DNA from: Nitrosococcus wardiae
GTDB taxonomy: Bacteria; Pseudomonadota; Gammaproteobacteria; Nitrosococcales; Nitrosococcaceae
Direction: 5' to 3'
DNA: 64,000 bases
NCBI RefSeq assembly: GCF_004421105.1
Contig: NZ_CP038033.1
Location: forward strand, 1,445,659-1,509,658
The first letter of the stretch is position 1; every line of letters begins with the position of its first letter. The position numbers were made by a program, and so were the translations under genes. Under the pieces are notes generated by a model. That model saw nothing but the letters and a program-made list of their open reading frames with translations, ran no database searches and was not told where the DNA came from. Of the stretch, positions 23,450 to 45,655 are shown in pieces.

Positions 23450-23463
23450 TTCATCGAGAAAAA

Positions 23464-28704: not shown

Positions 28705-28853
28705 TCCGTCTAATTTGTATCTCATAAAACTTTATCTTATCTAATAAGTATAAATAAATTAATAGCTTGAGATTTGCTATTCTCTTGGAACGTCTCATTT
28801 AATGCGCTAAAATCGCATTCCATAATGTGGGTAAAGACGTGGGTAGAGATAGC

Positions 28854-30080: not shown

Positions 30081-30255
30081 GTTTTCCTCCCTCTTTGGAA
30101 CAAGATGAGGGGTATGGGTACAACCATTAAAATTAAGAAACTGTTACTCTCTATTAGAACCCCTGCCTAAATTTTGCCGCTTGAAAATAATTTACTTTCA
30201 ATAAGTTAATGGATTAACTGTCTGAGGGATCGCCTTACGCTTGAAAGGGTGCAAT

Positions 30256-31020
30256 ATGCTGAAACCGGATTATTTAACCGTGCCTGAGCTAGCCGAACGG
30301 TGGGGACAAGGTGTTAAGCAAATTCTCTTCCATGCTTTGAATTTTAAGTTTCGGGCTTATTTCCTATTTGATGGCATAGTCTCCAATTATGGGGCTCCTA
30401 GACCCATTAACCACATAGAAGAGCATACATTACACCAAGAATACCAAGAAGAGATATACGGCTTACTTAGACTTACGCCGCGCCACCTTTTTGAGATATT
30501 AGACAGGGGAAAAACCTTATTTCCAAACCTGGCCTACCATCCTGAAGGGCCTTTAGTAGTCCGTAAAGTAAAGGGGCAGAAGGTATTAGATGGGCCAATA
30601 ATGAAGCTCTCGCCCCCTTTAGGACGGGATACTTTTCTTAAAGCCTTCCTTGCAGCGGATGATGTATTGGTGTTGCTTACTGATGTGCATGCTTTAGAGG
30701 AAAGAAATAAGCAGCCGCCAGCTAACAAGCTTAAAAAAAGGGAACCGTTTACCAAGGCTAAGCGGGCTGATCCCATGCGTCTACTACTTGAAGATCTTAT
30801 CTCAGAAATGGAAAGTGAAGAAGAAAAGGTAACAGCCGCTACCGTGATGCACCGATTGCGTAAAACGGTTGACATAGGGGAGTGTGTGGTCGACATATGT
30901 CCTAAAGGTGTGATATGGGAACAATCGTCCGGTCAGCCTAAGACTCTGACTATGGATGCGCTTAAAAAGCGCCTCCAGGCTATGGGATACCCGAAACAAG
31001 GGAGGGTAAAGGGAAGATAA
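30256..31020 (+). CDS. Hypothetical protein of mobile elements
   Basis: About 254 residues from ATG 30256 (AAAGGG ribosome site). The N-terminus (YLTVPELAERWG...) resembles the start of an excisionase-like winged helix, followed by a region rich in basic and acidic helices and a C-terminal segment (LTMDALKKRLQAMGYP). I do not recognise a catalytic domain. It lies between the integrase and the AlpA regulator, where satellites often keep regulatory genes. Confidence 0.65.
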   Translation: MLKPDYLTVPELAERWGQGVKQILFHALNFKFRAYFLFDGIVSNYGAPRPINHIEEHTLHQEYQEEIYGLLRLTPRHLFEILDRGKTLFPNLAYHPEGPLVVRKVKGQKVLDGPIMKLSPPLGRDTFLKAFLAADDVLVLLTDVHALEERNKQPPANKLKKREPFTKAKRADPMRLLLEDLISEMESEEEKVTAATVMHRLRKTVDIGECVVDICPKGVIWEQSSGQPKTLTMDALKKRLQAMGYPKQGRVKGR

Positions 31021-31115
31021 GCCTGCAAAGGAGAGGATAAGCCTATCAAGTAACATCAGGATTTTTATTTTGCTGAACTGTCCTTTCGTTTCAAAAAATA
31101 CAAAGACAGTTCACG

Positions 31116-31349
31116 ATGAATGAAAGAACTTTGCTCCAATTCGATGCTCTTCCTGATTCGGCTCTAGCAGATATCAATACCATTGCTGCCTATCTGGGAC
31201 GGGGAGTCTCTACGGTATGGCGATGTGCTAAAAGTGACCCCCTATTTCCAAAGCCGATTCGATTATCTGCCCGCTGCACCCGCTGGAAAGTGGGCGAGAT
31301 TCGCGCCTACGTAGCTGCCAAGGCAGGCGAAAGTGATGGATGCCATTAA
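31116..31349 (+). CDS. AlpA-family transcriptional regulator / excisionase
   Basis: 77 residues with a winged helix of the AlpA/MerR type (INTIAAYLGRGVSTVWRCA, then FPKPIRLSARCTRWKVGEIRAYV). AlpA proteins activate integrase genes or act as excisionases in P4-like and satellite elements. It is directly upstream of the DUF3631 gene. Confidence 0.85.
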   Translation: MNERTLLQFDALPDSALADINTIAAYLGRGVSTVWRCAKSDPLFPKPIRLSARCTRWKVGEIRAYVAAKAGESDGCH

Positions 31350-31369
31350 GGAAAGCAAGGGGGCACGGC

Positions 31370-32959
31370 ATGCAAAGTAGTTCAAAAAAACTCAAGGGAG
31401 GAAAGTGTTCTCATAAAGCGGACGCCATACCCACCGACTTTAACGGCTTACACCAGCTTGAGGGATTGGAAGAGGTAAAGCGGCAATTACCGGAAAGTAC
31501 TTCCTTCTCTAATAATTCTAGAGTAACCGATGGGACGGAGATTTTAGAACAAGCAGTTACGAGGCTGGCGGCGTTAAAGCCATTGGAATATGAGCAGGTA
31601 CGGGAGGTTGAGGCGCAGCGTTTTAGCGTTCGTGTGGTTGCCTTAGACAAGGAAGTGGAGCGGGTACGCCGAGAGCTAGGCGGCAAAGAGGAAGGCCCCC
31701 ATTTGGGAAGGGAGATTACTTTTGATGAGCCGGAGCCTTGGCCAGAGCCCGTCAACGGCAATGGATTGCTGAATGAAGTCAAAGCGGTATTTAATGGCTA
31801 TTTAGTGCTCCCCCCAATGGCGTCAAGCATTCTTGCTGCCTGGACAGTGCACACTTACCTCATAAACGCGGCGCACGCTACCCCTTATTTACATATTTCC
31901 TCGCCACAGCCCCAGTGCGGTAAATCCACACTTTTGGATTTGCTGGAGGCGCTTGTCTACCGGAGTTTTAAGTTCGCTAGTGCTTCTCCATCGGCAATAT
32001 TCAGAGTTATCGAAGAGCACCACCCGACTCTGCTGATTGATGAAGCGGACTCCTTCTTAAAAGAAAACGAGGATTTGAGGGGGATACTCAATGACGGTTA
32101 TAAGCCCAACGGTAGTGTTCTTAGGACAGTCTCCATTAATAATGAGCATCAAGTCAGAGCTTTTTCTACCTGGGGAGCCAAAGCCATTGCTGGGATAGGA
32201 AATCTGCCCACCACGATTGCTGATCGCTCTATTGAAATTACGCTCAAGCGGAAGCTGCCGACCGAGAAAACGAAACGGTTAAGGCTGCGCACGATTGGTA
32301 AGGAACTGCTACCCCTACGCCGAAGAATTGTCCGCTGGGTTGAAGATAATAAAGAGGCTATCGCCAAGGCAGAGCCCTTAATACCCGATGAACTGAGCAA
32401 CCGGCGCGAGGAGGTATGGGAAACGCTGTTTGCTATAGCCGATTGTGCAGGGGGTGATTGGCCGAAAGTAATGCGCCAGATAGCCGGACAGCAAAACACT
32501 AGCAGCGGTGACCAACCAGCGGAGTTGCAGCTATTAGCGGATATTCTTTCGGTTTTTGAAGACAAGCAAATTGATCGAATTTTCTCTAATGAATTGGTGG
32601 ATGCACTCATAGAAATGGAGGATCGCCCCTGGGGGGAGTGGAGGCGAGGAAAGCCGATAACAAGCAACTTATTATCCAAGCTACTTAAGCCTTTTAAGAT
32701 TAAAGCTAAGCAGGTATGGATATCCCCTAAAAACCGTAATGGCTATTTAAAAACGGATTTTGATGATGCCTATATCCGGTACGTAGGCTTTCAAAGGTCT
32801 AGAACTCTAAAGGCCCCGTCAGGCAAGAATTACAGCCATTTTCAAAATTCTAGAGGAAATGAAGCTCGAGAGTCTCACAAACCACCAGAATCCGCGCTAG
32901 ACGAGGGCTCTAGGGTTTTAGAATTTCAAAGCCCGGAGTTTGAGGGGAAGAGCAAATGA
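31370..32959 (+). CDS. DUF3631 ATPase (replication or helicase-like)
   Basis: About 529 residues from ATG 31370, or 539 from ATG 31340 overlapping alpA. The P-loop is in SSPQPQCGKSTLLDLLEAL (about residue 185) and a Walker B-like LLIDEADSFLKE follows. The C-terminal half contains the DUF3631 region (LLADILSVFEDK..., LLSKLLKPFKIK). Such proteins are common in phages and satellites and are thought to serve replication. In this element it takes the place of a primase/rep gene. Confidence 0.85.
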   Translation: MQSSSKKLKGGKCSHKADAIPTDFNGLHQLEGLEEVKRQLPESTSFSNNSRVTDGTEILEQAVTRLAALKPLEYEQVREVEAQRFSVRVVALDKEVERVRRELGGKEEGPHLGREITFDEPEPWPEPVNGNGLLNEVKAVFNGYLVLPPMASSILAAWTVHTYLINAAHATPYLHISSPQPQCGKSTLLDLLEALVYRSFKFASASPSAIFRVIEEHHPTLLIDEADSFLKENEDLRGILNDGYKPNGSVLRTVSINNEHQVRAFSTWGAKAIAGIGNLPTTIADRSIEITLKRKLPTEKTKRLRLRTIGKELLPLRRRIVRWVEDNKEAIAKAEPLIPDELSNRREEVWETLFAIADCAGGDWPKVMRQIAGQQNTSSGDQPAELQLLADILSVFEDKQIDRIFSNELVDALIEMEDRPWGEWRRGKPITSNLLSKLLKPFKIKAKQVWISPKNRNGYLKTDFDDAYIRYVGFQRSRTLKAPSGKNYSHFQNSRGNEARESHKPPESALDEGSRVLEFQSPEFEGKSK

Positions 32960-32993
32960 AGACCCCCTTTGAGCATGATAAGGGGGCTGTCTG

Positions 32994-33092
32994 ATGGAGG
33001 CACGCACCCTAATTGCACACCTAGAGGATAGGGATATCTATCTGGGTATCAATGCTGACCGGATTACAATCGATTCCCCAACAAAAGTATAA
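32994..33092 (+). CDS. Tiny protein, TubC-like docking motif (possible)
   Basis: 32 codons from ATG 32994, 34 bases after DUF3631. The sequence (LIAHLEDRDIYLGINADRIT...) has the look of the small TubC-N-like fold: a helix followed by L-x-l-n-x-d-x-i strands. It seems cut short compared with the next gene, and may be a decayed copy. Confidence 0.35.
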   Translation: MEARTLIAHLEDRDIYLGINADRITIDSPTKV

Positions 33093-33172
33093 TGAGTGAG
33101 GACTTACGCCCCAGATACTTCGTGAATACAAGCCGAAGAGTGTAGAGCTTTTAAGGGAAGTGAGCAAGAGCA

Positions 33173-33379
33173 ATGAAGATAGCACCGGAGGCTATTCTCA
33201 AATTGGTGAGGGAGTTCAATATTCACCTACCCACCTCAGGAAATGGGCATCTAATATTCAATGCCCCAAGGAACATAGGAGAACTACTGGTGAGAAATGC
33301 TGAGGCCATACAAACCTCGATTGTTGGGGGTAAGGCCGCCAGCCTTGGAGAATTAAAAATAATGGCGAAAACGATCTGA
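33173..33379 (+). CDS. Small protein, TubC-like (possible)
   Basis: 68 residues. AILKLVREFNIHLPTSGNGH and LIFNAPRNIGELLVRNAEAI give a helix, a short beta hairpin and a second helix, as in TubC-N-like docking domains found in mobile elements. An AAGGGAAG stretch lies about 15 bases before the ATG. Function unknown. Confidence 0.45.
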   Translation: MKIAPEAILKLVREFNIHLPTSGNGHLIFNAPRNIGELLVRNAEAIQTSIVGGKAASLGELKIMAKTI

Positions 33380-33626
33380 GAGCAGTAATTCTTTGACTTA
33401 CCCTACTCAACTACTCTATTGCTACTCCTATGTAACTTTAAACTCCAGAAGCTAGCCATTTCCTAGACTAGACCCTCATCTAGGCATGACCAACAGATTG
33501 GTAATGAGTTTTGTATCTCAGTGCTATACAACGAAGCAACTGCACCTGCAAATACACTAAAAAGTGCTGTTCTCAGGTAGTTTTCTGCAGGTAACGGTAT
33601 TTATAGAATATAACGAGGTGGGAGAT

Positions 33627-34001
33627 TCAGTCTTTATGAAGAGGGAGAGAAGCATCTTTAAGAACAAATTCTATTTTGACGGGATCAGGGATAGATTCAC
33701 CTGGCAAGATATCGGGTTTGTCTTTCCACAGGGTGGGGGCACGGTTTTTGAGATAGAAGATCATTGCTGTAACGTTGCCTTTTACCGCTTTATTAAATAA
33801 TGCGTTCGCCACATGAGCTAATCCCTTAGCCTGGCCTCTTTTTATAGCCTCCGCAATCTCTGGATTAAGCGTTTTATGCTTATATAGGGTGCTTTCTGAA
33901 ATCCCAAGGGCAGCCGCAATCTGTTCATGGGTTAAGCCACAAGAAGCAAGCTCCTCTACCCGATTAATTGGTATCTTTGCTTTCTGTTTCCCACGTACCA
34001 T
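33627..34001 (-). CDS. Terminase small subunit-like HTH protein
   Basis: About 124 residues; ATG 34001 chosen over TTG 34013. An HTH (LASCGLTHEQIAAALGISES, then TLYKHK) is followed by AVKGNVTAMIFYLKNRAP, a segment typical of phage terminase small subunits. In satellites such a protein redirects a helper phage's packaging to the satellite genome. No large terminase, portal or capsid gene is present. It is on the opposite strand to its neighbours. Confidence 0.7.
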   Translation of the reverse strand: MVRGKQKAKIPINRVEELASCGLTHEQIAAALGISESTLYKHKTLNPEIAEAIKRGQAKGLAHVANALFNKAVKGNVTAMIFYLKNRAPTLWKDKPDILPGESIPDPVKIEFVLKDASLPLHKD

Positions 34002-34013
34002 TTTCAGGGCCAA

Positions 34014-34386
34014 GTGGATGGGAGAAGGGGTGCGGTGTCACAAAGATAATAAGCGTTCAACTTAGTAAGTTATTTTATCTGCTTAAATTTTAGGTAGGTT
34101 AAACTATAAGTATTGATTTATAGTATACCCCTAAACTATAAGCGTTGTCTATAAAACAACAAAGATAATGGACCAAGTTAAAGCACAAGGAGTCTGCGGT
34201 AATTTTCTCAAGCGGGCTATATTCTCCCGAATTCTGCCGCTATTTCTAGATGATTAGCTGTAAGCTAAAAAGTAGATTAGGGGAGCTTTTTTTTTCTAGT
34301 CAAGTTCTCTATATATATGTATAGTTTGAGGCTCAAAGCAAGACCCATTTGACTATTATCATATAAATACCTTGGAGATCAAGGAG
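34014..34386. promoter_or_regulatory. AT-rich intergenic region with repeated sites
   Basis: TAAACTATAAG occurs at 34100-34110 and 34132-34142, and an inverted repeat (ACTATAAG / TTTATAGT) spans 34103-34124. A related sequence, TCTATAAAAC, follows at 34149. Such spaced repeats between divergent genes (the terminase-like gene and the small gene at 34387) suggest an operator or replication iterons; I cannot tell which. Confidence 0.45.
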
Positions 34387-34557
34387 ATGGAAATAAAAGG
34401 TAAGCAGACGCTTAAGTATATGAGCAGCGTTGAACGTGCTCAAGCGAATTATGAAGCCCTGCTTCGGGAAGGCCAGCAATTGCGCCAAAACGTCAAAGAG
34501 CGCCTCGAAGCGGTTACTAAAATTAGCGACAAAAAAGTAAGACTAAGGCTGCGGTAG
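34387..34557 (+). CDS. Small coiled-coil-like protein
   Basis: 56 residues from ATG 34387 (TTG 34372 is possible and would add five). The AAGGAG directly adjoins the ATG, which is close, so the TTG start or a later one should be considered. The middle (VERAQANYEALLREGQQLRQ) is highly helical and charged. It lies 35 bases before the peptidase-like gene and may be its partner. No known family. Confidence 0.5.
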   Translation: MEIKGKQTLKYMSSVERAQANYEALLREGQQLRQNVKERLEAVTKISDKKVRLRLR

Positions 34558-34592
34558 GATGAGAGTAAAGAGAAAGAGGCCAGCATTCTACT

Positions 34593-36167
34593 ATGTCCAC
34601 TAATACGCTTGCTAAAAACCAATTCGGCAAGCGCCCAAATAATTGGATTGAATGTGAGCCGTTTTTAAAAGAAACTTTCATAGACATTGTCCAGAAGGCT
34701 AGCAGTTTTTTAGATGAACATAGCTGGGAAGCTAATCCCCAAGTACAATATTTGTCACATTACTTAACCTCCTTGAAGGCTAAGTCTTTAGTAGTAGAAT
34801 ACCATTATATTGATAGGCACTTCATGGAAGAGGCTAGTCTTTACTATTCTAAGAGCCTGATTCCGCGGCCAAACTGGACAACTCGTGTGCACGTCTTTAG
34901 TGATCTCATGGACGAGGAACGAATTGATGAGGCAATGCGTACTGCTGCGTCTGGTTACATAGCTAAAGTTACGGAAGAGCTTCAGCAATCCTATTGTGGT
35001 TATATAGTTATAAGGCCTTTACCATCTGCCCCTATTGGTAGGACGGTGCTAAAGCATTTAAAGTGCCGAGAAGGCGATAAAAAAAGGGAGTTTCTCACAT
35101 GCCAAGCTTATACCATACATTTCTTAGGTTTCGAATTGACGGTTCATGGCATTGCTTTTCAGCAGCAAGATAGAGCTGTTGCGGCGTGCGCAACAACTGC
35201 AATTTGGTCTTCGCTTCAGCGCGTGACCCGCAGGGAAGGAGCAAGATCACCAACTTCTTGGGAGATTACTGAGGCTGCAGTGCGGCATTATCTTCCACGG
35301 GGACGTCCATATCCATCCTCAGGTTTAACTATAGAGCAGATGTGTGAAGCTCTACGTGCCTTTGGATTTGCCCCAGATTTGTTAGTGGCAGAGGAATCAT
35401 CCAGTCCTAATGAATTTCTGCTTTTGATGGATATATATTTGAGATCCGGTATTCCTATTATTCTGACATTTCGGACTGGAGAATGGGGACATGCTGTAAC
35501 GGTGGTTGGTTATGGAACATCTCATAAGATTTCGACTCCTTATGAGATCAGCTCGGGGGAAAAGACATATAAAATCGTCCTTCACAATCTCGACTATGAC
35601 CGTATCTATATTCATGATGACCGACTGGGTCCATATGCCCGCTCTACTTTGAATATTGGTAAACAGAGCTTAACCGACAACGAAACCAGTTCTCCTCCGC
35701 AACTTGCTATTAACATAGAGTGGCCTAACGGGCAAATGGAAGAGCATAGTGTCTATTTAGCAGCTGTGCCTGTTTATCCAAAGCTTCGTACAAGTGCGAA
35801 AGAGCTTTTTGAGACTGCGATGGAACTCTTCCCATATCTTACCGAGGCTCTCTCCGATTTGAATCAGGAGCTTGGCCTGCTTGTCTACTTTGAACGTTCT
35901 GGAGAATACCAGGCGTCCCTTTATGGGAAAACAGTTAATCCTAGCAGAGTTCCTCAGTTTCAGAAAACTATTGCCCTGAGTAGATACGTCGGGGTTCACC
36001 GTTGGTATCTTGATGGTATGCCATTTATGGAAACGCTATGGGATACTACTGATACTATGCGTGAGAATAGATATGGTGAAAACTTGTTAGGAGTTACTTG
36101 CTTGAAACCTTCTCTACAAACCTTTGTTGATGGCCTTGCAAGTCGATATAATGCTGTCCTGGGTTAA
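34593..36167 (+). CDS. Putative C39-like (papain-fold) cysteine peptidase protein
   Basis: 524 residues, not matching a family I know. The middle third has the layout of a C39/papain-like domain: Gln-rich approach and nucleophile in AFQQQDRAVAACATTAIW (Cys199), SGIPIILTF then GHAVTVVGYG (His300), and YIHDDRLGPYAR (Asp342 or 343). The 190-residue N-terminal part and the 170-residue C-terminal part have no recognised domain, and there is no signal peptide or membrane segment, so it is likely cytoplasmic. It overlaps the convergent membrane-protein gene by four bases. A role in defence, toxin processing or helper interaction is possible but unproven. Confidence 0.6.
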   Translation: MSTNTLAKNQFGKRPNNWIECEPFLKETFIDIVQKASSFLDEHSWEANPQVQYLSHYLTSLKAKSLVVEYHYIDRHFMEEASLYYSKSLIPRPNWTTRVHVFSDLMDEERIDEAMRTAASGYIAKVTEELQQSYCGYIVIRPLPSAPIGRTVLKHLKCREGDKKREFLTCQAYTIHFLGFELTVHGIAFQQQDRAVAACATTAIWSSLQRVTRREGARSPTSWEITEAAVRHYLPRGRPYPSSGLTIEQMCEALRAFGFAPDLLVAEESSSPNEFLLLMDIYLRSGIPIILTFRTGEWGHAVTVVGYGTSHKISTPYEISSGEKTYKIVLHNLDYDRIYIHDDRLGPYARSTLNIGKQSLTDNETSSPPQLAINIEWPNGQMEEHSVYLAAVPVYPKLRTSAKELFETAMELFPYLTEALSDLNQELGLLVYFERSGEYQASLYGKTVNPSRVPQFQKTIALSRYVGVHRWYLDGMPFMETLWDTTDTMRENRYGENLLGVTCLKPSLQTFVDGLASRYNAVLG

Positions 36168-37015
36168 GGAGAAAAGAACTTGTGCTGTTCTTTGCTTTTG
36201 CTTTTAGCTGGGATAAATTTAGCATAGAATTGCTTTAAGCGACTGGATTTCTGTTGTTCATTTGTAAGATATTGCCAGAGTTCAAGATCAAATAAGTGGC
36301 TTGAAACAATTTGGTCTGAAGACAGCACAATTTCGAGATCTTCTAGCTCCACATGCTTAAGCTGTGGTAATTCCTTATTAGTAATTTTATGTATTACTTC
36401 ATAATCTGTTGTGAAATGGATTTTATGGTTATCAAGATCTCTGTACCCGCTCAGCATAGGTAATATTCTTACAGCTGATCTTTTTTCTACAGGATTTGGT
36501 GCCCATACTGCCCACCCTACAAAGACTTTGCCGCTACTTAATGTAAATAAAAGTGGTTGACTTTTTTCGGTGGACCTCAAAATTAATTTTTCAAAATCCT
36601 TATGCTTTATAGCAAGTTTTAATAATAGTTGTTCCCACTTAAAAAAAGGCTTTATACCAGAAAAGGGAATTTGAAAATTATACAAATACGGTATTCGCGG
36701 AAAGTTTAATAATTGCGCTAGTGCTGGTCCCAGCATAGCAGAAATAATTAGAACGGCTATTTTGGCCTCTTGCCCCCAGATAGGAGCATTTAGGTTTGAC
36801 TGCCCATTAAAAAAGGATAAGAAATCTCGGTAGTTATGGAATTTTAAAAAAAGAATAATATGTATAAGAAAGGCGCAAATTACAAGAAAAAGTCCATAAA
36901 AAGCAGCTCTAAAATATAGTTTGTGGCCAGATTCACGGGAAGTATGATAGCGGGTATAAGACCAAATTGCTGAAAACGCATAACCGCCTACTATAGGCAA
37001 TAACCCAGCAAGCAT
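36164..37015 (-). CDS. Membrane protein, DUF6338-like (tentative)
   Basis: 283 residues: about three membrane helices in the first 115, then a cytoplasmic part containing LLFTLSSGKVFVGWAVWAPNP and RSAVRILPMLSGYRDLD, an SH3-like beta pattern recalling DUF6338 proteins. That family link is from memory of the pattern and should be tested. It is the second gene of a pair with the 56-residue gene 13 bases upstream, and its 3' end overlaps the peptidase-like gene. Confidence 0.55.
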   Translation of the reverse strand: MLAGLLPIVGGYAFSAIWSYTRYHTSRESGHKLYFRAAFYGLFLVICAFLIHIILFLKFHNYRDFLSFFNGQSNLNAPIWGQEAKIAVLIISAMLGPALAQLLNFPRIPYLYNFQIPFSGIKPFFKWEQLLLKLAIKHKDFEKLILRSTEKSQPLLFTLSSGKVFVGWAVWAPNPVEKRSAVRILPMLSGYRDLDNHKIHFTTDYEVIHKITNKELPQLKHVELEDLEIVLSSDQIVSSHLFDLELWQYLTNEQQKSSRLKQFYAKFIPAKSKSKEQHKFFSP

Positions 37016-37028
37016 GAAAGCCGTTACT

Positions 37029-37199
37029 TTAATCTAATAATCCTTCTTTTTTTAATTTTCCTAAAATTTTAATTTGGCGTTTGGCTTCCGGTGTCTTTAC
37101 AATTTCTGATGATTTTACGTGGACGACGCCAGGCCCACTAATTTCTATTTTTGGCTTGTAATCTTTCGATTTAAAAACATTCTTTATAGCTTCTTTCAT
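37029..37199 (-). CDS. Small basic protein upstream of the membrane gene
   Basis: 56 codons from ATG 37199: IEISGPGVVHVKSSEIVKTP followed by a Lys-rich C-terminus (ILGKLKKEGLL). The spacing of 13 bases to the membrane-protein gene and the good reading frame support it as a real gene of the same operon. Function unknown. Confidence 0.6.
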   Translation of the reverse strand: MKEAIKNVFKSKDYKPKIEISGPGVVHVKSSEIVKTPEAKRQIKILGKLKKEGLLD

Positions 37200-37305
37200 C
37201 TATAAGGCATCCAATTCTAGCAGCTATGACAATATATAATTTTAGCAGCAATTATTATATTTTGCACCCATAAAAATCACTCAAATTTGCTATAAAACAA
37301 AAATC

Positions 37306-37329
37306 GGCTATTTGCAATCTGAGGTTGGA
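37306..37329 (+). repeat. Left terminal inverted repeat of the ISL3 transposon
   Basis: GGCTATTTGCAA, four variable bases, then AGGTTGGA. It matches the right end over 12 plus 7 positions. Two related sites (37363-37385 and 37410-37432) follow inside the element. Confidence 0.9.
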
Positions 37330-37362
37330 TTGTGGCTTTTGACAGATTGGTAGAGAAATACC

Positions 37363-37434
37363 TCTTTTGTGCAAAACTTGGTTGACAGCTCTCCTTCACT
37401 CATTGTACCGTTTTGTGCAAAATGAGGTTGGAGG
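37363..37434 (+). promoter_or_regulatory. Candidate promoter and operator of hsdMSR-tnp
   Basis: A perfect -35 box TTGACA (37382-37387) has a weak TGTACC about 16 bases later. The palindrome TTTTGTGCAAAA occurs twice, at 37365-37376 and 37411-37422, once just before the -35 box and once between the -10 and the GGAGG ribosome site (37430-37434). Both copies are followed by the GGTTG core of the terminal repeats. A transposase bound there could repress the operon; this is inference. Confidence 0.5.
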
Positions 37435-37439
37435 CCAAC

Positions 37440-39467
37440 ATGAACGAATTTGCAGGATCAGCAGCTTCACAGGCTGATTTTATCTGGAAGAATGCGGAAG
37501 ACCTTTGGGGTGATTTCAAGCACACAGACTTTGGTAAGGTTATATTGCCGTTCACCCTGTTGCGTCGTTTGGAGTGTGCGCTTGAGCCAACCCGTGAGGC
37601 AGTACGAGAAGCCTACAACAGCTTTAAAGATGCTGACGTAGAGCTTGATCCCATTCTTCGTTCAACGGCTGACTTCCCTTTCTACAACACCTCCGAGTAT
37701 TCCCTCGGCACGCTGGGTAGCACCAAGACCCGACGCAACCTCGAAGATTATATTGCTCTGTTTTCTGATAACGCTCGGAAAATCTTTGAAGAATTCGAGT
37801 TCGGCAACACGGTGATTCGTCTGGAGCGTGCTGGCCTTCTCTATAAGATTTGCCAGAACTTCGCCAAGATCGATCTGCACCCTGATGTAGTGCCGGACCG
37901 GGTAATGAGCAACATCTATGAACACCTGATCCGCCGCTTTGGTGCAGAGGTTAATGAGGGGGCCGAGGATTTTATGACCCCGCGTGACATCGTTCACTTA
38001 GCGACCTCACTCCTGCTTGACCCAGATGACTCGCTATTTGAAGCAAGCCCTGGATTGATCAGAACCCTATATGATCCGACGTGTGGGACCGGTGGATTCC
38101 TTACCGACGCCATGAATCATGTCACCGAATATGGAAACCAGTACAAGGTCCCACCTGTACTGGTTCCCCATGGCCAAGAGTTAGAGCCGGAGACCCATGC
38201 CGTCTGTGTGGCCGGCATGCTTATTCGCCGTTTGGAGTCCGACCCTGGCCGTGATCTGTCAAAGAACATCCGTCAGGGAAGCACTCTGTCAAACGACCAG
38301 TTTTCCGGGGAACGCTTTCACTACTGCCTATCCAATCCGCCTTTTGGCAAGAAGTGGGAGAAGGATAAAGACGCCGTCGAGAAAGAGCATAAACAGGGCG
38401 AGCTGGGCCGTTTTGCGCCGGGTCTGCCCAAGATCAGCGACGGCTCTATGCTGTTCCTGATGCACCTGGCCAGCAAGCTGGAGCTGCCTAAAAATGGCGG
38501 TGGTCGGGCTGCTATCGTCTTGTCCGGTTCGCCGTTGTTCAATGGTGGTGCGGGTTCTGGTGAGTCTGAAATCCGCCGCTGGTTGCTCGAAAACGACCTG
38601 GTTGAAGCCATTGTCGCTATGCCAACGGATCTGTTCTTTCGTGCCAATATCGCCACATACCTGTGGATTCTTTCCAACAAGAAGCCGGAAGATCGCCAGG
38701 GCAAGGTGCAGTTGATCAACGCCACCGACCTGTGGACTTCTATCCGCAATGAAGGTAACAAGCGCCGCATTGTCGGCGATGATCAGCGCAGACAGATTCT
38801 GGATATTTACGCGGCAGCGGAGAGCGGTGAACTGTCCAAAATGCTGGATTACCGGACTTTCGGGTATCGCCGTATCAAAGTGCTTCGACCGCTACGGATG
38901 AAACTCGTACTAGACCAGGAAGGGCTGGATCGCCTGACATTCGAACCGGCGTGGACGAAGTTGTCACCAGACCATCAATCTTTCTGGTTGGAAGCAATCA
39001 AGCCACGGATTGGGGAAACGGTCGATTATAATTGGGCTGAAACCTTCGCCAAGGCAACCATTAAATCGGAAGATGCCAAGTCGCTGAAGGTAAAAGCCAA
39101 CAAGACCTTTATCAATGCTCTGATCAGCGCCTTTGGCCACAAAGACCCGGAGGCCGAGCCGGTAACTGACGTTAAAGGAGATGTGGTTCCCGATACAGAC
39201 TTGACCGATTACGAGAACGTCCCCTTCCTGGAGAATATTCGGGATTACTTCGCCCGTGAAGTTTTGCCCCATGTGCCCGATGCCTATATCGACGAAAGCT
39301 TTACCGACGACAAAGACAAGCGCCTGGGCCGCGTGGGTTACGAGATCAATTTCAACCGCTTCTTCTACCAATACCAAACACCACGCAAGCTGCACGACAT
39401 TGATGCCGAGCTAAAGCAGGTAGAGGGGGAAATTGCTGATCTATTGGCTGAGGTTGCGAGCGAATGA
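37440..39467 (+). CDS. hsdM: Type I restriction-modification methyltransferase subunit HsdM
   Basis: 675 residues from ATG 37440, with GGAGG five bases upstream. After an N-terminal helical domain (about 1-150, FIWKNAEDLWGDFKHTDFGK, LPFTLLRRLE) come the SAM motif DPTCGTGGFLTDAM (about 213) and the adenine-methylation motif NPPFGKKW (about 299). HsdM methylates N6 of adenine in host DNA and is needed with HsdS for both modification and cutting. The C-terminus (about 500-675) is longer than in E. coli HsdM and ends in a helical region typical of a widespread HsdM subgroup. It overlaps hsdS by four bases (ATGA). Confidence 0.96.
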   Translation: MNEFAGSAASQADFIWKNAEDLWGDFKHTDFGKVILPFTLLRRLECALEPTREAVREAYNSFKDADVELDPILRSTADFPFYNTSEYSLGTLGSTKTRRNLEDYIALFSDNARKIFEEFEFGNTVIRLERAGLLYKICQNFAKIDLHPDVVPDRVMSNIYEHLIRRFGAEVNEGAEDFMTPRDIVHLATSLLLDPDDSLFEASPGLIRTLYDPTCGTGGFLTDAMNHVTEYGNQYKVPPVLVPHGQELEPETHAVCVAGMLIRRLESDPGRDLSKNIRQGSTLSNDQFSGERFHYCLSNPPFGKKWEKDKDAVEKEHKQGELGRFAPGLPKISDGSMLFLMHLASKLELPKNGGGRAAIVLSGSPLFNGGAGSGESEIRRWLLENDLVEAIVAMPTDLFFRANIATYLWILSNKKPEDRQGKVQLINATDLWTSIRNEGNKRRIVGDDQRRQILDIYAAAESGELSKMLDYRTFGYRRIKVLRPLRMKLVLDQEGLDRLTFEPAWTKLSPDHQSFWLEAIKPRIGETVDYNWAETFAKATIKSEDAKSLKVKANKTFINALISAFGHKDPEAEPVTDVKGDVVPDTDLTDYENVPFLENIRDYFAREVLPHVPDAYIDESFTDDKDKRLGRVGYEINFNRFFYQYQTPRKLHDIDAELKQVEGEIADLLAEVASE

Positions 39468-40696
39468 GTCAGTATAAAGCGTATCCGGCATACAAGGATT
39501 CCGGCGTTGAGTGGATTGGGGAAGTGCCGGAGCATTGGGAGGTTAAACCTATTTGCCGTGTAGCTTCGGTCAATGATGATGTGCTTTCAGATTCGACCGA
39601 TGGCGACACCCCTATTCGTTATGTTGACATATCGTCGGTGGACTATACGGATGGTATCAAGCAAGCCGCAAACATGCGTTTTGCCGATGCTCCGTCCAGA
39701 GCTAGACGTAAGGCACTTCCTGGTGATGTTGTTGTTTCGACAGTAAGAACGTATCTCAAAGCAGTAGCTGCCGTTAATGATCAATATTCCGATTGCGTTT
39801 TTTCTACCGGCTTCGCCGTTCTTAGAGCGCGAAATCTAAACTATTCCTTCCTCAAATGGATGACCCTCAATGAGCTTGTGATTCAAGCAATAGAGGCTCA
39901 TTCCGAGGGATTAAGTTATCCTGCGATCAACGCGTCAGCCTTGGTAAAACTGAAAACCACCGTTCCGCCACCCGACGAACAAGTCACTATTGCGGCCTTT
40001 CTCGACCGCGAAACCGCTCGCATTGACACTCTAATCCAGAAGAAAACTCGGTTCATCGAACTTCTGAAGGAGAAGATTGTTGCGACTGCAATGGCCGAGC
40101 AAATGTATGGGGATGGTGAACTTATTCGCTTAAGATATCTGACACAAATAATTTCGAGACCTGTAGAGATAATTGACGGCGATGAATACGTTGCATTGGG
40201 ACTCTACAATAGAGGGCGCGGTTTGTTTCACAAGCCGCCCACGCTAGGTAAAAATATTGGCGATTCGGACTTTTTCTATGTGAAAGAAGGTGATCTGATT
40301 CTTAGTGGGCAATTTGCTTGGGAAGGCGCTTTGACAATGGCGTCTAGTAACGAAAACGGATGCGTTGTCTCCCATCGTTACCCTGTAATTAGGGGAAAAA
40401 CAGTACCAACGGAATATTTGCTCGCTCTTTTGATGACAAATTTCGGCGATTTTTTGCTAAATGAATCTTCCCGAGGGTCAGCAGGAAGAAACCGCCCACT
40501 AAACATCAACCTCCTTCTCAACGAGAAGGTGCGGATGCCATCACCCAAGGCACAACAGGATGTCAGAAGGCTCATCAATCTGAAAGCGAAGCTTGAAACT
40601 AAAGTCCTAGGCAGTATTAGGCTTCTCAAAGAGCGCCGTGCCGCTCTTATCACCGCCGCCGTAACCGGGCAAATTGATCTGCGAGGAGAGCAATAA
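39464..40696 (+). CDS. hsdS: Type I R-M specificity subunit HsdS
   Basis: 410 residues with two target-recognition domains. The first starts after GVEWIGEVPEHWEVKP (about 14-29). A central conserved helix (PPDEQVTIAAFLDRETARID, then LIQKKTRFIELLKEK) separates it from the second, and the C-terminal conserved helix (LLKERRAALITAAVTGQIDL) repeats the pattern. The recognition sequence cannot be predicted. The next gene starts directly after the stop (TAA-ATG). Confidence 0.95.
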   Translation: MSQYKAYPAYKDSGVEWIGEVPEHWEVKPICRVASVNDDVLSDSTDGDTPIRYVDISSVDYTDGIKQAANMRFADAPSRARRKALPGDVVVSTVRTYLKAVAAVNDQYSDCVFSTGFAVLRARNLNYSFLKWMTLNELVIQAIEAHSEGLSYPAINASALVKLKTTVPPPDEQVTIAAFLDRETARIDTLIQKKTRFIELLKEKIVATAMAEQMYGDGELIRLRYLTQIISRPVEIIDGDEYVALGLYNRGRGLFHKPPTLGKNIGDSDFFYVKEGDLILSGQFAWEGALTMASSNENGCVVSHRYPVIRGKTVPTEYLLALLMTNFGDFLLNESSRGSAGRNRPLNINLLLNEKVRMPSPKAQQDVRRLINLKAKLETKVLGSIRLLKERRAALITAAVTGQIDLRGEQ

Positions 40697-43600
40697 ATGG
40701 ATCCGTCAGCACACCAGGAAAAGCATTTCCAGCAGTACATCGTAGATCGCTTGGTCGAACAGGGCTGGAAAGTGGGTGGCACCCAACACTATGACACCGA
40801 ACGGGCAATCTACCCGGAAGACCTCGAAAGCTGGATTAAAGGCAGCGGCCAGCAAGATAAGTGGGACAAGTTGGAACGGCTCAACGGAACCAAGACGTTT
40901 GAAGTGCTGATGGATCGTCTGCATAAGGCGCTGGAAAAGCAGGGAACCATGCATGTGTTGCGTCAGGGCTTTTCGATTGCTGGTTGCGGCCTGATCGAGA
41001 TGACAGAAACCGCCCCCGAGGATAAACGCAACCAGGCGGTGGTTGAGCGCTACAAAGCAAACATTCTGCGTGTGGTGCCGGAACTCAAGTACCATCCCGC
41101 CCGCGAGTTTGCCGTTGATCTGGTGCTGTTCATCAATGGCCTGCCAATGGCGACAGTCGAACTGAAAACTGACTTCACCCAGTCGGCAGAAGCGGCGATG
41201 GACCAATACCGAAATGACCGCCTGCCTTTTGACCCCAAGACCAAGCGCAAGGAACCATTGCTGACCTTCAAGCGCGGCGCGGTGGTGCATTTTGCCATGT
41301 CTGATTCAGAGATCATGATGGCGACCAAGCTGGAAGGGGAAAATACGTTCTTCCTGCCATTCAATAAGGGCAGGACGGAGGAAGACGGCGCAGTCCATGC
41401 CGGCAACCCTCCCGGCGAAATCAAGCCTGATGGCACGCAGGAATACCCGGTAGCCTATTTTTGGGAAGATGTCTGCCAGCCTGATGCCTGGCTGCGAATT
41501 TTCCACAGCTTTGTCTATGTCGAGAAAAAGGATGTGGTGGATATTCAGGGCAACTGGTCGAAGAAGGAAACCCTGATTTTCCCTCGGTTCCACCAGTGGA
41601 CAGCGGTTAATGAGATGCTGGCCGATGCGCGTAAAAATGGTGCGGGCATGACATACCTGGCCGACCATAGCGCCGGTTCAGGCAAGACCAGCACCATATC
41701 ATGGGCAGCCCACGATCTGGTAAAACTGCGCGAGGACAATGGCGACGCGGTCTTTAACAACGTGATCATTGTCACCGATCGCAATGTGCTTGATGGACAG
41801 CTTCAGGACGCCGTAAAGCAGATTGACCACCAGTTTGGGGTGATTGCTGCCATTGACCGGCATAAGTCCTCCAAATCCAAGAGCAAACAGCTCTCCGACG
41901 CCCTGTTAGCTGGGACGCCGATTGTCGTCGTTACCATCCAGACCTTCCCGTATGCCATGGAAGCCATTATCACGGACAAGAATCTGAAGGGTAAGAACTT
42001 CGCGGTCATCATTGATGAGGCCCATAACTCACAGACGGGCTCTACAGCGGCGAAACTCCAAGCTGCCCTGGGCATGAGTGGGCAGGGGAGAATGTCTACC
42101 ATGACGGTGGACGAGCTGTTGGAACAGCTGCAAAAGTCGCGTTCGCGTCCCGCCAATATCAGCTATTTTGCGTTCACCGGCACGCCGAAGCACTCCACGC
42201 TGATGCTGTTTGGCCGTCCGCAAGATCCGAATCAGCCTGTATCCGACGACAATCCACCGGTTGCTTTTCATAAGTACACCATGCGCCAGGCTATTGAGGA
42301 AAAATTCATCCTCGATGCTCTCAAAGGCTACGTTACCTACCAGACGGCTTTTAACCTTTCCAAGCAGCTTGAAGACAGCAAACGCGTCAGTGGCAAAGCG
42401 GCAAAACGCGCCCTCGCGCAATGGATGGCACTCCATCCAACGAACGTGACCCAGAAAGTGCAATTCATTATTGAGCACTTTACCAAGAATGTTGCACACC
42501 GGTTGGATGGCAAGGCAAAGGCTATGGTCGTGACAAGCTCTCGTGCCGCCGCTATTCGCTACAAAAAAGCCTTTGACCGTTATATCGAGCAGCATAGCGA
42601 ATATGGGTTTATTCATTCATTGGTGGCCTTCTCCGGCAAGATGACCGGTAAACAGGTAATGCACCAGGACGATGGTGCATTCAAAGAGGATATCTTTCTT
42701 GTTGATGAAAACGAGGAGTTTACCGAGCAAAGCATGAACCCGGATGCGCAGGGTCAGGATTTGAGATTTGCCTTTGACCGCCCTGAATACCGGGTCATGT
42801 TGGTAGCCGACAAATTCCAGACGGGTTTTGACCAGCCCAAGCTGATGGCGATGTACGTGGATAAGAAAATCGCCAATCATGTGGAGATCGTGCAAACCTT
42901 CGCACGCTTGAACCGGACCGCTCCCGGCAAGGATGAGGTCTTTATCATCGACTTTGTGAATGATCCAGACAATGTGCGAACGGCCTTTGAGACCTATGAT
43001 CAAGGTGCACACATTGACGAAGTGCAAGACCTCAATGTGGTTTATGAGATCAAGGAGCGTCTGGACGAACACGGCCTATACGATGAAAAGGATCTGGCTG
43101 CATTCAAAGACGCCAGATTCAAGACCATTCGCGATATTACTCACGCCAAGTCGCCACAACATAAGGAGTTGTATGCGGCCACCAGCCGGGCCACGACTCT
43201 GTATAACGACAAGATGAAAATGCTTCGTGATGGCATGGCGACCTGGGAGGCTGTCTTTGAAAAAGCTCACGCGAAAGGGGATGAGGCAGGAATGAAGTCT
43301 GCTGACCATCACCAGGATGAATACGCGGAGCAAATCAAGGCGCTCATCGGTTTTAAGTCTGATCTTGGGCGTTTCTGCCGCACCTATTCCTATGTTGCCC
43401 AACTGATCGACTTTGGAGACCCGGAGTTAGAGAACTTCGCCGCCTTCGCCAAGTTGCTGCAAAAGCGCCTGCTTCACGAAGCGCCGGAAACAGTCGATCT
43501 GACCGGCCTTGTTCTCACCGGCTTTGATATAAAGGGACGCCCTGACGATGAAAACGAAGATGGGGAGACGCCAGTGCTCCAGCCTGTTGGTCCCGGTGGC

Positions 43601-43954
43601 GGCGGTGGCGTTGGTGATAAGCCTAAGTTCGTAAAAGAGATCGTAGACCGACTCAATAGCCTTTTTGGTGAGGCGACGCCAATTCAAGATCAGGTTGCCT
43701 TCGTCAATCAGATCAAGTCAATCACCGGTGAAAACGATGTCGTGATGGCTCAGGTCGAGAGCAATACACGGGAACAGGCACTAAAAGGCAATTTGCCCGG
43801 CGCGGTTCAACAGGCTGTTGTCCGTGCCCTGTCAAGCCACCAGAAACTGGCAACCCAGGTGCTCAAATCCGACCATCAGGGCATGACCGCGCTGGTAGAC
43901 GTGGTGTACGACATATTGCGCGAAGGCAAAGACCTCGACTTGAATATGGATTAG
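40697..43954 (+). CDS. hsdR: Type I R-M restriction endonuclease subunit HsdR
   Basis: 1085 residues. The N-terminal PD-(D/E)xK nuclease is visible as FAVDLVLFINGLPMATVELK (Asp141, Glu155, Lys157). A helicase motor follows: Walker A AGSGKTST (about 327), DEAH box IIDEAHNS (about 438), FTGTP, and the motif-VI region TFARLNRTAPGK. The C-terminal helical domain binds the methyltransferase core. It translocates DNA and cuts unmethylated DNA. The frame is intact, so the complete system should be functional. The transposase gene begins four bases after its stop. Confidence 0.96.
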   Translation: MDPSAHQEKHFQQYIVDRLVEQGWKVGGTQHYDTERAIYPEDLESWIKGSGQQDKWDKLERLNGTKTFEVLMDRLHKALEKQGTMHVLRQGFSIAGCGLIEMTETAPEDKRNQAVVERYKANILRVVPELKYHPAREFAVDLVLFINGLPMATVELKTDFTQSAEAAMDQYRNDRLPFDPKTKRKEPLLTFKRGAVVHFAMSDSEIMMATKLEGENTFFLPFNKGRTEEDGAVHAGNPPGEIKPDGTQEYPVAYFWEDVCQPDAWLRIFHSFVYVEKKDVVDIQGNWSKKETLIFPRFHQWTAVNEMLADARKNGAGMTYLADHSAGSGKTSTISWAAHDLVKLREDNGDAVFNNVIIVTDRNVLDGQLQDAVKQIDHQFGVIAAIDRHKSSKSKSKQLSDALLAGTPIVVVTIQTFPYAMEAIITDKNLKGKNFAVIIDEAHNSQTGSTAAKLQAALGMSGQGRMSTMTVDELLEQLQKSRSRPANISYFAFTGTPKHSTLMLFGRPQDPNQPVSDDNPPVAFHKYTMRQAIEEKFILDALKGYVTYQTAFNLSKQLEDSKRVSGKAAKRALAQWMALHPTNVTQKVQFIIEHFTKNVAHRLDGKAKAMVVTSSRAAAIRYKKAFDRYIEQHSEYGFIHSLVAFSGKMTGKQVMHQDDGAFKEDIFLVDENEEFTEQSMNPDAQGQDLRFAFDRPEYRVMLVADKFQTGFDQPKLMAMYVDKKIANHVEIVQTFARLNRTAPGKDEVFIIDFVNDPDNVRTAFETYDQGAHIDEVQDLNVVYEIKERLDEHGLYDEKDLAAFKDARFKTIRDITHAKSPQHKELYAATSRATTLYNDKMKMLRDGMATWEAVFEKAHAKGDEAGMKSADHHQDEYAEQIKALIGFKSDLGRFCRTYSYVAQLIDFGDPELENFAAFAKLLQKRLLHEAPETVDLTGLVLTGFDIKGRPDDENEDGETPVLQPVGPGGGGGVGDKPKFVKEIVDRLNSLFGEATPIQDQVAFVNQIKSITGENDVVMAQVESNTREQALKGNLPGAVQQAVVRALSSHQKLATQVLKSDHQGMTALVDVVYDILREGKDLDLNMD

Positions 43955-43958
43955 GCCA

Positions 43959-45227
43959 ATGCTTGACCTGCTCAATCTACCTGGCATTAAGCCGGTGGAT
44001 ATGTATAAAGAAAGCAAGGCGCTCATTATCGTGGCCGTACCAGAAACTGTTGAGGTTCCTGTTTGCGGGGATTGCAATATCCCGATGCACAAGCATGGCA
44101 CTCGCAAAAACAAGTTCTCGGATACGCCGCTGTATATGGAGCCGGTGCGCCTTGAAATTCAGCGCCCCCGCTTTCGCTGCGAATCTTGCGGCAAGATGGC
44201 GATGCCTGAACTGAGCTTTCTTGATGATAAGCGCCGCGCTACCAAACGCTTGGTGGACGTAATCCGACAACAGTGCCTGAGCATGACGTTCCGTGCTTTG
44301 GCAGAACAAACTGGTGTGGCTGTAAACACCGTCAAGAACATTGCGCACGACCTGATCGATGAGCTAGCCCAAACCGTTCGATATGAAACCCCAGTCATCA
44401 TGGGTATCGATGAGGTAAATCTTGCCGGTGGCTATCGCTGTGTCATTACCAACCTGGCGACCAATAACGTGTTCGATATGCTAGAGCACAGAACGCAGGA
44501 GCATTTGAAACCGTTCTTCAGGGAGTTGCCGGACAAAGATAAGGTGGAGTGGGTCTGCACTGATATGTGGAGGCCCTTCAAGCGATCCTTTGCGCAGTAT
44601 CTCCCGAATGCCAAGCTGGTCATCGACAAGTTTCACGTCGTCAAAATGGCTTCTGAAGCGCTGGAGGAAGAGCGCAAAAAGTATCAGTCACAATTGAGTA
44701 AAGAGCAGCGAATTTACGTCAAAAAATCCATACGCTGGCTGACTCTGAAGCGCCCCGAAAATCTGACACCCACAGAGCAAAAAGCGTTGCAGGTCGTGCG
44801 CCAGGCTATTCCAGAGCTTGCTGTCGCCTACGACTTCAAGGAAAGCTTCTTCGGGATTTACGATGAGCCTGATAAACAAAAGGCTCAGAATGCGTTTGAA
44901 GCCTGGGAGAACACTTTGCCTATGCAGGGACTACAGTCGTTCAGGAGATTGGCCAAAACAGTCCATAACCATCACGACGACATTTTTGCTTACTGGGATG
45001 CGCCATTCCCGATCATTAATGCCTATACCGAAGGGCTGAACGGGCTGATCAAGATGAGCAACCGTTTGGGTAGAGGCTATAGCTACCACATCATCCGAGC
45101 AAAGACGCTGTATTCAAAAGAAGCTCGGAAGGTCGGGACTGGTATTCGTGCTGGGCGTGAAAAGGTGGAGTATGGGCCTCACATACCGACACTCCTCAAG
45201 CAGGCGGAGAGCGGTGACCTGGATTAG
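43959..45227 (+). CDS. ISL3-family transposase
   Basis: 422 residues. A zinc-finger N-terminus (CGDCNIPMHKHG, then CESCGKMAMP) and a helix-turn-helix (LAEQTGVAVNTVKNIAHDLI) precede the DDE domain with Asp in MGIDEVNLAGG, Asp in CTDMWRPFKRS, and Glu in AYTEGLNGLIK. It appears intact. Placed four bases after hsdR, it is probably transcribed with the restriction genes, so transposition is tied to their expression. Confidence 0.93.
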   Translation: MLDLLNLPGIKPVDMYKESKALIIVAVPETVEVPVCGDCNIPMHKHGTRKNKFSDTPLYMEPVRLEIQRPRFRCESCGKMAMPELSFLDDKRRATKRLVDVIRQQCLSMTFRALAEQTGVAVNTVKNIAHDLIDELAQTVRYETPVIMGIDEVNLAGGYRCVITNLATNNVFDMLEHRTQEHLKPFFRELPDKDKVEWVCTDMWRPFKRSFAQYLPNAKLVIDKFHVVKMASEALEEERKKYQSQLSKEQRIYVKKSIRWLTLKRPENLTPTEQKALQVVRQAIPELAVAYDFKESFFGIYDEPDKQKAQNAFEAWENTLPMQGLQSFRRLAKTVHNHHDDIFAYWDAPFPIINAYTEGLNGLIKMSNRLGRGYSYHIIRAKTLYSKEARKVGTGIRAGREKVEYGPHIPTLLKQAESGDLD

Positions 45228-45348
45228 AAATACACTCTGGAATCAGAATCCAACCAAGTATTCATCAGTTGAATGTTTTAAAGAGTTACGAAATCCAACC
45301 AGGCATGCTCAACAAATAGAAGGATGTTCAGGGGTGGTGATTAGGAAA

Positions 45349-45373
45349 TTCCAACCCTGTTTTGCAAATAGCC
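45349..45373 (-). repeat. Right terminal inverted repeat of the ISL3 transposon
   Basis: Read on the minus strand: GGCTATTTGCAA, four bases, GGGTTGGAA. Two further TGGTTGGAT sites on the minus strand lie at about 45293-45300 and 45248-45256, so both ends carry several subterminal copies of the probable transposase-binding core. Confidence 0.9.
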
Positions 45374-45562
45374 CAAAAATCTTTAAATGCGGCAGAGGTA
45401 GAGTTAATTGGGTAGGCAGTAAAAATAGGCTGACCCACCCCTGGGCTAGCTTTTTCTTCATTCCTTGCCAGACAGGCACTATAAAAAAATGGGGTACAGG
45501 CGTGGGTAGATAAATATTTTTGAAATATAATTATTTTAAAATCAAAAAGTTAATATAAATAT
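45374..45562. other. Right-end sequence of the integrative element
   Basis: Starts with the target duplication CAAAAATC (45374-45381). Several TGGGTA/GACCCA-type motifs follow (about 45408, 45432, 45491 and 45501-45510), candidates for integrase arm sites. The last 50 bases are AT-rich. No gene is supported. Confidence 0.6.
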
Positions 45563-45577
45563 ATGGCGGAGAGGGCG
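45563..45577. repeat. Right attachment site (direct repeat)
   Basis: ATGGCGGAGAGGGCG, the right copy of the integration repeat, lying in the 3' end of the tRNA-Ser gene, which stays intact. Confidence 0.85.
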
Positions 45578-45655
45578 GGATTCGAACCCGCGTGGGCTGC
45601 AATAGCCCCAACCGATTTCGAGTCGGTGCCGTTGTGACCGCTTCGGTACCTCTCC
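45564..45655 (-). tRNA. tRNA-Ser, anticodon CGA
   Basis: A complete 92-base tRNA with encoded CCA. The acceptor stem GGAGAGG/CCTCTCC, D stem CCG/CGG, anticodon stem ACCGA/TCGGT with loop CTCGAAA (anticodon CGA, codon UCG), a long variable arm as expected for class II Ser tRNA, and a T arm GCGGG-TTCGAAT-CCCGC all fit. It is the integration target of the neighbouring element. Confidence 0.97.

What the first reader, a model, noticed from the sequence alone, without database searches (positions are those of the whole stretch)
37306..45373. ISL3-family transposon carrying a complete type I restriction-modification operon
Seen directly: matching terminal inverted repeats (GGCTATTTGCAA, then RGGTTGGA) at 37306 and 45373, and a perfect 8-bp duplication CAAAAATC just outside each end. 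Known: ISL3 elements make 8-bp duplications. Inside, hsdM, hsdS, hsdR and the transposase gene form one tight plus-strand run with overlaps or gaps of at most four bases, and all four look intact. A whole type I system moving as the cargo of one small transposon, with the transposase as the last gene of its operon, would explain how such systems jump between islands. I do not know of a described element of exactly this kind.
Basis: partly seen in the sequence, partly recalled or inferred. Interest (0 to 1): 0.93.

Follow-up and report, generated by a model that had tools for sequence, protein, structure and literature searches.

The report
ISKpn25-like transposon carrying restriction-modification operon
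This is an apparently intact, single-copy jumping gene that carries a full DNA-restriction immune system; it is a relative of ISKpn25, an already catalogued element of the same design, so the design is known, though the wider group shows an old partnership whose target-recognition parts keep being swapped.

Summary
Window 37306-45373 (8,068 bp) has matching terminal repeats, a perfect 8-bp duplication and one plus-strand run hsdM-hsdS-hsdR-ISL3 transposase. The claim that no such element is described is wrong: ISKpn25 (ISL3, 8,154 bp) has the same layout (684/438/1085/422 aa; here 684/410/1085/422; PMC8796155), its hsdM is called a passenger gene (PMC5142620), and it was caught transposing with 8-bp duplications (PMC8768599). 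The window Tnp is about 88% identical, so this is a sister, not an isoform. Added here, at group level: hsdR lies upstream of tnp in 46 of 47 scanned loci with Tnp at least 53% identical (the 47th starts inside tnp), in 0 of 32 with 39% or less. HsdM, HsdR and Tnp diverge together while HsdS recognition halves are shuffled, also between N and C positions. The ends share a three-site pattern. An uninterrupted ISKpn25 target has one copy of the duplication. New member of a known kind; mobility and restriction by this copy are inferred.

The parts
37298..37305 (.). 8-bp target-site duplication, left copy (CAAAAATC)
37306..37329 (+). left terminal inverted repeat (24 bp shown)
   Evidence: like ends in the elements
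37380..37386 (+). left subterminal GGTTGR site 2 (element position 75)
   Evidence: function inferred
37426..37432 (+). left subterminal GGTTGR site 3 (element position 121); overlaps the likely Shine-Dalgarno of hsdM
   Evidence: function inferred
37440..39467 (+). hsdM (675 aa from ATG 37440; 684 aa from TTG 37413), type I methylase subunit
   Evidence: Pfam N6_Mtase and HsdM_N; PADLOC MTase_I
39464..40696 (+). hsdS (410 aa), specificity subunit with two recognition halves
   Evidence: Pfam Methylase_S; conservation profile
40697..43954 (+). hsdR (1085 aa), restriction and translocase subunit
   Evidence: Pfam SWI2_SNF2 and HSDR_N
43959..45227 (+). ISL3-family transposase (422 aa)
   Evidence: Pfam DDE_Tnp_ISL3, HTH_Tnp_ISL3, Zn_ribbon_ISL3; NF033550
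45249..45255 (-). right subterminal site 3 (position 119 from the right end)
   Evidence: function inferred
45294..45300 (-). right subterminal site 2 (position 74 from the right end)
   Evidence: function inferred
45350..45373 (-). right terminal inverted repeat
45374..45381 (.). 8-bp target-site duplication, right copy (CAAAAATC)

Best explanation
The stretch is a complete ISL3-family transposon of the ISKpn25 kind. The transposase, made from the last gene of an hsdM-hsdS-hsdR-tnp operon, recognises both ends (a terminal repeat plus two inner copies of GGTTGR at about positions 74 and 119 on each side) and moves the whole 8-kb unit to AT-rich targets, duplicating 8 bp. The cargo is a type I R-M system: HsdM with HsdS methylates, and with HsdR restricts unmodified DNA, so each jump can install a new DNA-marking and defence specificity. 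Specificity changes by exchange of HsdS recognition halves at conserved joints, while HsdM, HsdR and Tnp mostly stay together. Shown: anatomy, duplication, kinship, co-divergence, half-sharing between elements, the empty site of an ISKpn25 copy, and (in print) movement of ISKpn25. Inferred: that this copy is active, that its R-M works, that Tnp binds the inner sites, and that binding near the hsdM start could regulate the operon.
For: Ends and duplication. Domains. Gene sizes match ISKpn25. Movement of 8,154-bp ISKpn25 with 8-bp duplications in print (PMC8768599, passages). Plasmid copies with the same four genes. 46 of 47 loci with Tnp at least 53% identical have hsdR upstream of tnp (44 of the 46 at -8 to +10 bp), 0 of 32 with Tnp 39% or less. 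16 of 19 testable loci show perfect 8-bp duplications, all different. Uninterrupted E. coli allele: the two flanks overlap by exactly 8 bp. Pairwise identities over 28 complete elements correlate: HsdM-HsdR 0.978, HsdR-Tnp 0.954, HsdM-Tnp 0.947; HsdS against the others 0.24-0.32. HsdS halves: 94 pairs at least 60% identical, 28 of them between N and C positions.
Against: No empty site for this copy. Three of 19 testable loci with both ends lack the duplication (L019, L020, L027). Single copy in its genome, so no sign of repeated movement there. Gene trees conflict slightly: the window Tnp groups with Methylophaga/Paenibacillus elements (96/89), its HsdR and HsdM with the Marinobacter/Klebsiella side (100/99 and 95/94), so the unit has probably been recombined internally. 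No sigma-70 promoter match in the left end ahead of hsdM. The inner sites are not universal: the left end of L045 shows none and that of L044 only one inner site, at 128.
Confidence: 0.93

Rival explanations
1. A chance arrangement: an ordinary chromosomal type I operon next to an unrelated ISL3 insertion sequence, with inverted repeats and duplication by coincidence.
For: Relatives of the HsdR without an adjacent ISL3 transposase exist.
Against: Like ends enclose these genes, with different 8-bp duplications, in 16 other elements, and the genes co-diverge.
Confidence: 0.01
2. A once-mobile element now fixed in a tRNA-Ser genomic island; it persists because the R-M system is useful or addictive, and moves only with the island. 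(This does not exclude the best explanation of what the element is, only of what it still does.)
For: Single copy; it lies at the tRNA end of an island-like stretch with 44-bp direct repeats and a phage-type integrase.
Against: Open frames, intact catalytic residues and a perfect duplication suggest little decay since insertion.
Confidence: 0.3
3. The R-M operon is a recent, replaceable passenger of a general-purpose ISL3 insertion sequence.
For: Other ISL3 elements carry unrelated passengers (ISPst2: permease and ArsR regulator, PMC6305408, passages); 32 of 32 loci with Tnp 39% or less identical show no hit to the hsd proteins (some of these loci are short contigs).
Against: 46 of 46 testable loci with Tnp at least 53% identical have hsdR, in hosts labelled Pseudomonadota, Bacillota and Acidobacteriota among others, with co-divergence. 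Plasmid records with Tnp but little HsdR include, in the 60 rows sampled of 2,408, recurring end fragments of ISKpn25; no solo form was seen among them.
Confidence: 0.08

Closest known systems
ISKpn25 (ISL3 family; NC_009650; listed from ISfinder in PMC8796155)
   Same: Four genes in the same order and nearly the same sizes, the same kind of ends, 8-bp duplications. Against the pKp11-42 copy L102: Tnp 87.7%, HsdR 90.4%, HsdM 87.4% identical
   Different: HsdS only about 30% identical to that of L102, length 8,068 against 8,154 bp, other host; too divergent to be an isoform
ISSm4-type ISL3 element on Enterobacter kobei plasmid p070
   Same: hsdS-hsdR-ISL3 Tnp in one run with an hsdM match upstream
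   Different: Tnp 72% identical, extra PDDEXK nuclease gene inside the operon
ISPst2a/b (ISL3 element with other passengers, PMC6305408, passages)
   Same: ISL3 family, inverted repeats, 8-bp direct repeats, passenger genes
   Different: 2,985 bp; passengers are a permease and an ArsR regulator
Domain movement within hsdS (PMC3077401; title and start of abstract only)
   Same: Recognition sequences move between positions inside hsdS
   Different: Reported for Helicobacter pylori; here inside a transposon group found in several phyla

Membership tests
ISL3 insertion-sequence family | ISL3 DDE transposase with HTH and zinc ribbon | tested here: met
ISL3 insertion-sequence family | Terminal inverted repeats starting GG (here GGCT...) | tested here: met
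   compare the ISL3 element ISArsp7, GGCTCTTCGCGG...,
ISL3 insertion-sequence family | 8-bp target duplication | tested here: met
   16 of 19 testable relatives
ISKpn25 kind (ISL3 element with hsdMSR) | hsdM-hsdS-hsdR-tnp between ISL3 ends | tested here: met
ISKpn25 itself (isoform) | More than 95% identity (naming rule recalled, from no call) | tested here: not met
   Tnp 87.7%, HsdS about 30% identical to the pKp11-42 copy
Type I restriction-modification system | M, S and R subunits with methylase, recognition and nuclease/translocase motifs | tested here: met
Type I restriction-modification system | ATP-dependent restriction and N6-adenine methylation of a bipartite site | not testable with these tools
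   needs methylome and plating assays
Active transposon | Movement of this copy | not testable with these tools
   shown in print only for ISKpn25 (PMC8768599, passages)

The most novel reading that the evidence does not exclude
The ISKpn25 clade is not an insertion sequence with a chance passenger but an old transposon lineage in which a type I R-M operon is a standing part. It is spread over Pseudomonadota, Bacillota and Acidobacteriota, has conserved three-site ends, and has a HsdM-HsdR-Tnp core that diverges as one. Its HsdS recognition domains are drawn from a shared pool and move between elements and between N and C positions. Some lineages add further defence-like genes (Abi, GmrSD, YhcG nuclease, RhuM). 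It would then be a mobile immune system that changes its target while keeping its engine.
Probability: 0.55. Interest if true: 0.55.

Novelty: new member of a known kind. Interest (0 to 1): 0.36.

Why it matters
Type I systems vary in specificity between close strains and turn up in islands and plasmids. A dedicated small transposon that carries the whole operon gives a simple route for that spread. Many of the 34 papers listed for ISKpn25 (listing) concern drug resistance, above all colistin; its cargo as a restriction system came up in few of the passages I saw. The group-level pattern makes testable whether R-M cargo helps a transposon persist and how recognition domains are exchanged.

Tried and rejected
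Chance repeats: rejected. Solo ISKpn25-like IS in plasmids: one search gave 1,586 records whose best Tnp place is 80-90% identical, only 556 with HsdR at 80-95%. The sampled rows show recurring end fragments (query 7528-8221, or about 17-303), not a solo element; only 60 of 2,408 records were seen. Empty site of the window copy: not found. Empty site for the Methylophaga element L011: the left flank matches 22 of 23 other genomes of its genus (one of them over only 26 bases), the right flank 0 of 23, so inconclusive. Phage carriage: 44 of 50,697 phage records hold a Tnp match, all under 60% identical. Solved structures: none for Tnp; HsdR and HsdM match only distant type I entries, among them EcoR124. 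Promoter scan of the left end: nothing ahead of hsdM. Literature: 10 searches listed no paper that I could recognise, from titles, abstract starts and the passages I opened, as describing the wider group as a group. The library holds open-licence papers only, and Furuta et al. 2010 (gkp1226), a survey of mobile R-M forms (known to me from its citations), was not held, so this is weak evidence of absence.
Full report
Observation. The element spans 37306-45373 (8,068 bp), with ends GGCTATTTGCAATCTGAGGTTGGA and, inward from the right, GGCTATTTGCAAAACAGGGTTGGA, and CAAAAATC outside both ends. hsdM, hsdS, hsdR and tnp follow each other with a 4-bp overlap, no gap and a 4-bp gap. Pfam and NCBIfam profiles match all four. 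ATG 37440 with GGAGG ahead of it is the likelier hsdM start (my reading; the annotated plasmid copy has the same 675-aa length).

Already described. Tblastn of the transposase against plasmids led to features named 'ISKpn25 family transposase'. Annotated copies on a Citrobacter and a Klebsiella plasmid have methyltransferase, S, R and Tnp in that order. PMC8796155 (passages) lists ISKpn25 from ISfinder as 8,154 bp with frames of 684, 438, 1085 and 422 aa; its function labels look swapped between the first and last frame. PMC5142620 (passages) calls hsdM a passenger gene of ISKpn25 within an R-M system. PMC8768599 (passages) recorded insertions of 8,154-bp ISKpn25 into a trap vector with 8-bp duplications such as TATTTATC. 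That R-M genes ride on insertion sequences and transposons is a known idea (PMC3031569 and PMC4176335, passages). So the kind is known and mobile.

The wider group. One scan of a collection of 84,980 species genomes with the window Tnp confirmed 101 stretches; the best 80 gave 79 loci. Of the 47 with Tnp at least 53% identical, 46 have hsdR upstream of tnp; L046 begins inside tnp. Of the 32 with 39% or less, none has a hit to any hsd query (several of these loci are short). In 44 of the 46 the hsdR-tnp distance is -8 to +10 bp; in L036 a further frame lies between, in L038 the hsdR frame ends early. All 32 loci with all four hits have the same order. The scan used short peptides of the window Tnp, so it favours close relatives. 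Two weaker cases with the same link came from other searches: plasmid L157 (Tnp 49.5%) and L158 (46.8%). Many hosts are metagenome-assembled genomes, and contamination was not tested.

Ends and duplications. The script looked at 50 loci (L004-L050, L101-L103). Of 21 with both ends within two mismatches, L042 and L047 run off the contig at an end; of the other 19, 16 have perfect 8-bp duplications and L019, L020 and L027 have none. In 18 complete elements (window, these 16 and EC28) GGTTGR motifs were counted. Right end: 17 of 18 have copies at 18, 72-75 and 117-120; L039 lacks the first. Left end: 13 of 18 have inner copies at 74-75 and 118-121, three have both shifted by about 10 bases (L029, L033, L043), L044 has one at 128 and L045 none; the terminal left copy is exact in 10 of 18. 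The third left copy overlaps the hsdM ribosome site in the window. That these are transposase sites is inference.

Empty site. In E. coli EC28 an 8,154-bp copy interrupts opgB, with CATGTTTT on both sides. The uninterrupted allele of strain 4/2-1 has one copy, and the two flanks overlap there by exactly 8 bp. The left flank alone is found in 5,370 of 5,426 E. coli genomes. For the window copy no empty site could be found.

Coherence and exchange. 28 of 51 loci passed the length limits I set for all four proteins (L004, L031, L047 and L049 fell out by length, others for missing or partial genes). Pairwise identities of HsdM, HsdR and Tnp correlate at 0.947-0.978, HsdS with the others at 0.24-0.32; medians are HsdM 73, HsdR 76, Tnp 71 and HsdS 32%. 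Elements with Tnp, HsdM and HsdR above 95% identical can have HsdS at 35% (L009-L010). In 12 close relatives HsdS is conserved at the start, middle and end and variable between. Of 70 HsdS halves (35 proteins, cut at the middle), 55 have a partner at least 60% identical over 100 or more residues; 28 of 94 such pairs join an N and a C half, for example L010 C with L101 N at 95% and L005 N with its own C at 97%. The window N half is nearest to L035 N (70%) and also matches L020 C (67%); its C half is nearest to L011 C (76%). Its N half is 80-90% identical to hsdS sequence on 29 of 607 matching plasmid records; those listed are largely Klebsiella and relatives. This is exchange of recognition domains, known for type I systems (PMC3874165, passages).

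Catalytic residues. In the 28 elements the HsdR and most HsdM positions checked are invariant (HsdM NPPF has one Tyr for Phe); Tnp E358 is invariant, D151 and D202 are kept in 27 of 28 each, so one or two of the relatives may be dead.

Trees. Tnp, HsdR and HsdM trees agree in main groups and put Paenibacillus (Bacillota) elements beside Methylophaga ones, which points to transfer across phyla if the assemblies are clean. One conflict touches the window: its Tnp joins the Methylophaga/Paenibacillus set (96/89), while HsdR and HsdM join the set of Marinobacter, Pseudomonas, Pectobacterium, Pantoea and the two plasmids (100/99, 95/94). Among the 30 HsdR loci taken from 369 class genomes, only the window and L114 have a Tnp hit. 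A quick tree of 50 HsdR (28 elements, L114-L131, L156-L159), 32 with and 18 without a nearby ISL3 Tnp, needs 3 changes of the label (shuffled mean 15.0), with the outer 13 all without; 'without' rests on at most about 1.5 kb of downstream sequence, only 422 bp for L122. A wider sample of 398 phylum genomes, partly the same ones, had 5 with a match at E 1e-250 or better. So the link is old but not perfect.

Extra genes. I picked ten of the extra frames between core genes for Pfam: nine matched, namely RhuM (L019), RhuM with Fic (L040), YhcG-type PDDEXK nuclease (L020, L026), Abi_2 (L022, L044), GmrSD (L035), AlbA/Schlafen with a RecG-like domain (L037) and PIN (L049); L024 gave none. PADLOC, for six of them, matched defence or candidate defence families, weakly so for L037. 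Plasmid elements show the same habit.

Setting. The window copy lies in an island-like stretch that ends at tRNA-Ser (45564-45655): direct repeats of 44 bp at 28661-28704 and 45534-45577 (82% identical), an integrase at 28827-30080 beside the far repeat. The tRNA side is shared with relatives; the left flank is not. In G001 the same tRNA is followed by a different hsdM (L106 from 2857).

Verdict. A new, divergent member of a known kind. The group-level findings are the interesting part; ten searches of an open-licence library showed me no description of the group, which is weak evidence, and the most relevant survey of mobile R-M forms was not held.

Noticed in passing
window 28661-45577: Island-like stretch at tRNA-Ser with 44-bp imperfect direct repeats at both ends and a tyrosine integrase at 28827-30080; the transposon sits at its tRNA end.
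   Followed up: partly
L106 2857-3765 (G001): In a relative the same tRNA-Ser is followed by a different type I hsdM, so the site may be a recurrent place for defence genes.
   Followed up: partly
window 34593-36167 and 36164-37015: Two proteins of 524 and 283 aa in that stretch without any Pfam match at E 0.001.
   Followed up: no
window 22961-23916: Two neighbouring minus-strand frames resembling the DDE and HTH parts of an IS630-type transposase.
   Followed up: no
plasmid hits H136-H159: The same right-end fragment (about 694 bp, 96.5-96.7% identical) of an ISKpn25-like element recurs in these sampled records, nearly all Klebsiella plasmids and mostly without a listed gene: it looks like a fossil.
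   Followed up: partly
L005 hsdS (5387-6739): N and C recognition halves are 97% identical, which would predict a near-palindromic bipartite target.
   Followed up: no
OZ195684.1 and similar Vibrio phages, 22195-23340: Vibrio phage records with a transposase and a DNA methyltransferase annotated under the same ISL3 Tnp match.
   Followed up: no
G000:C1:103031-105247: A second, about 40% identical HsdR match elsewhere in the same genome.
   Followed up: no
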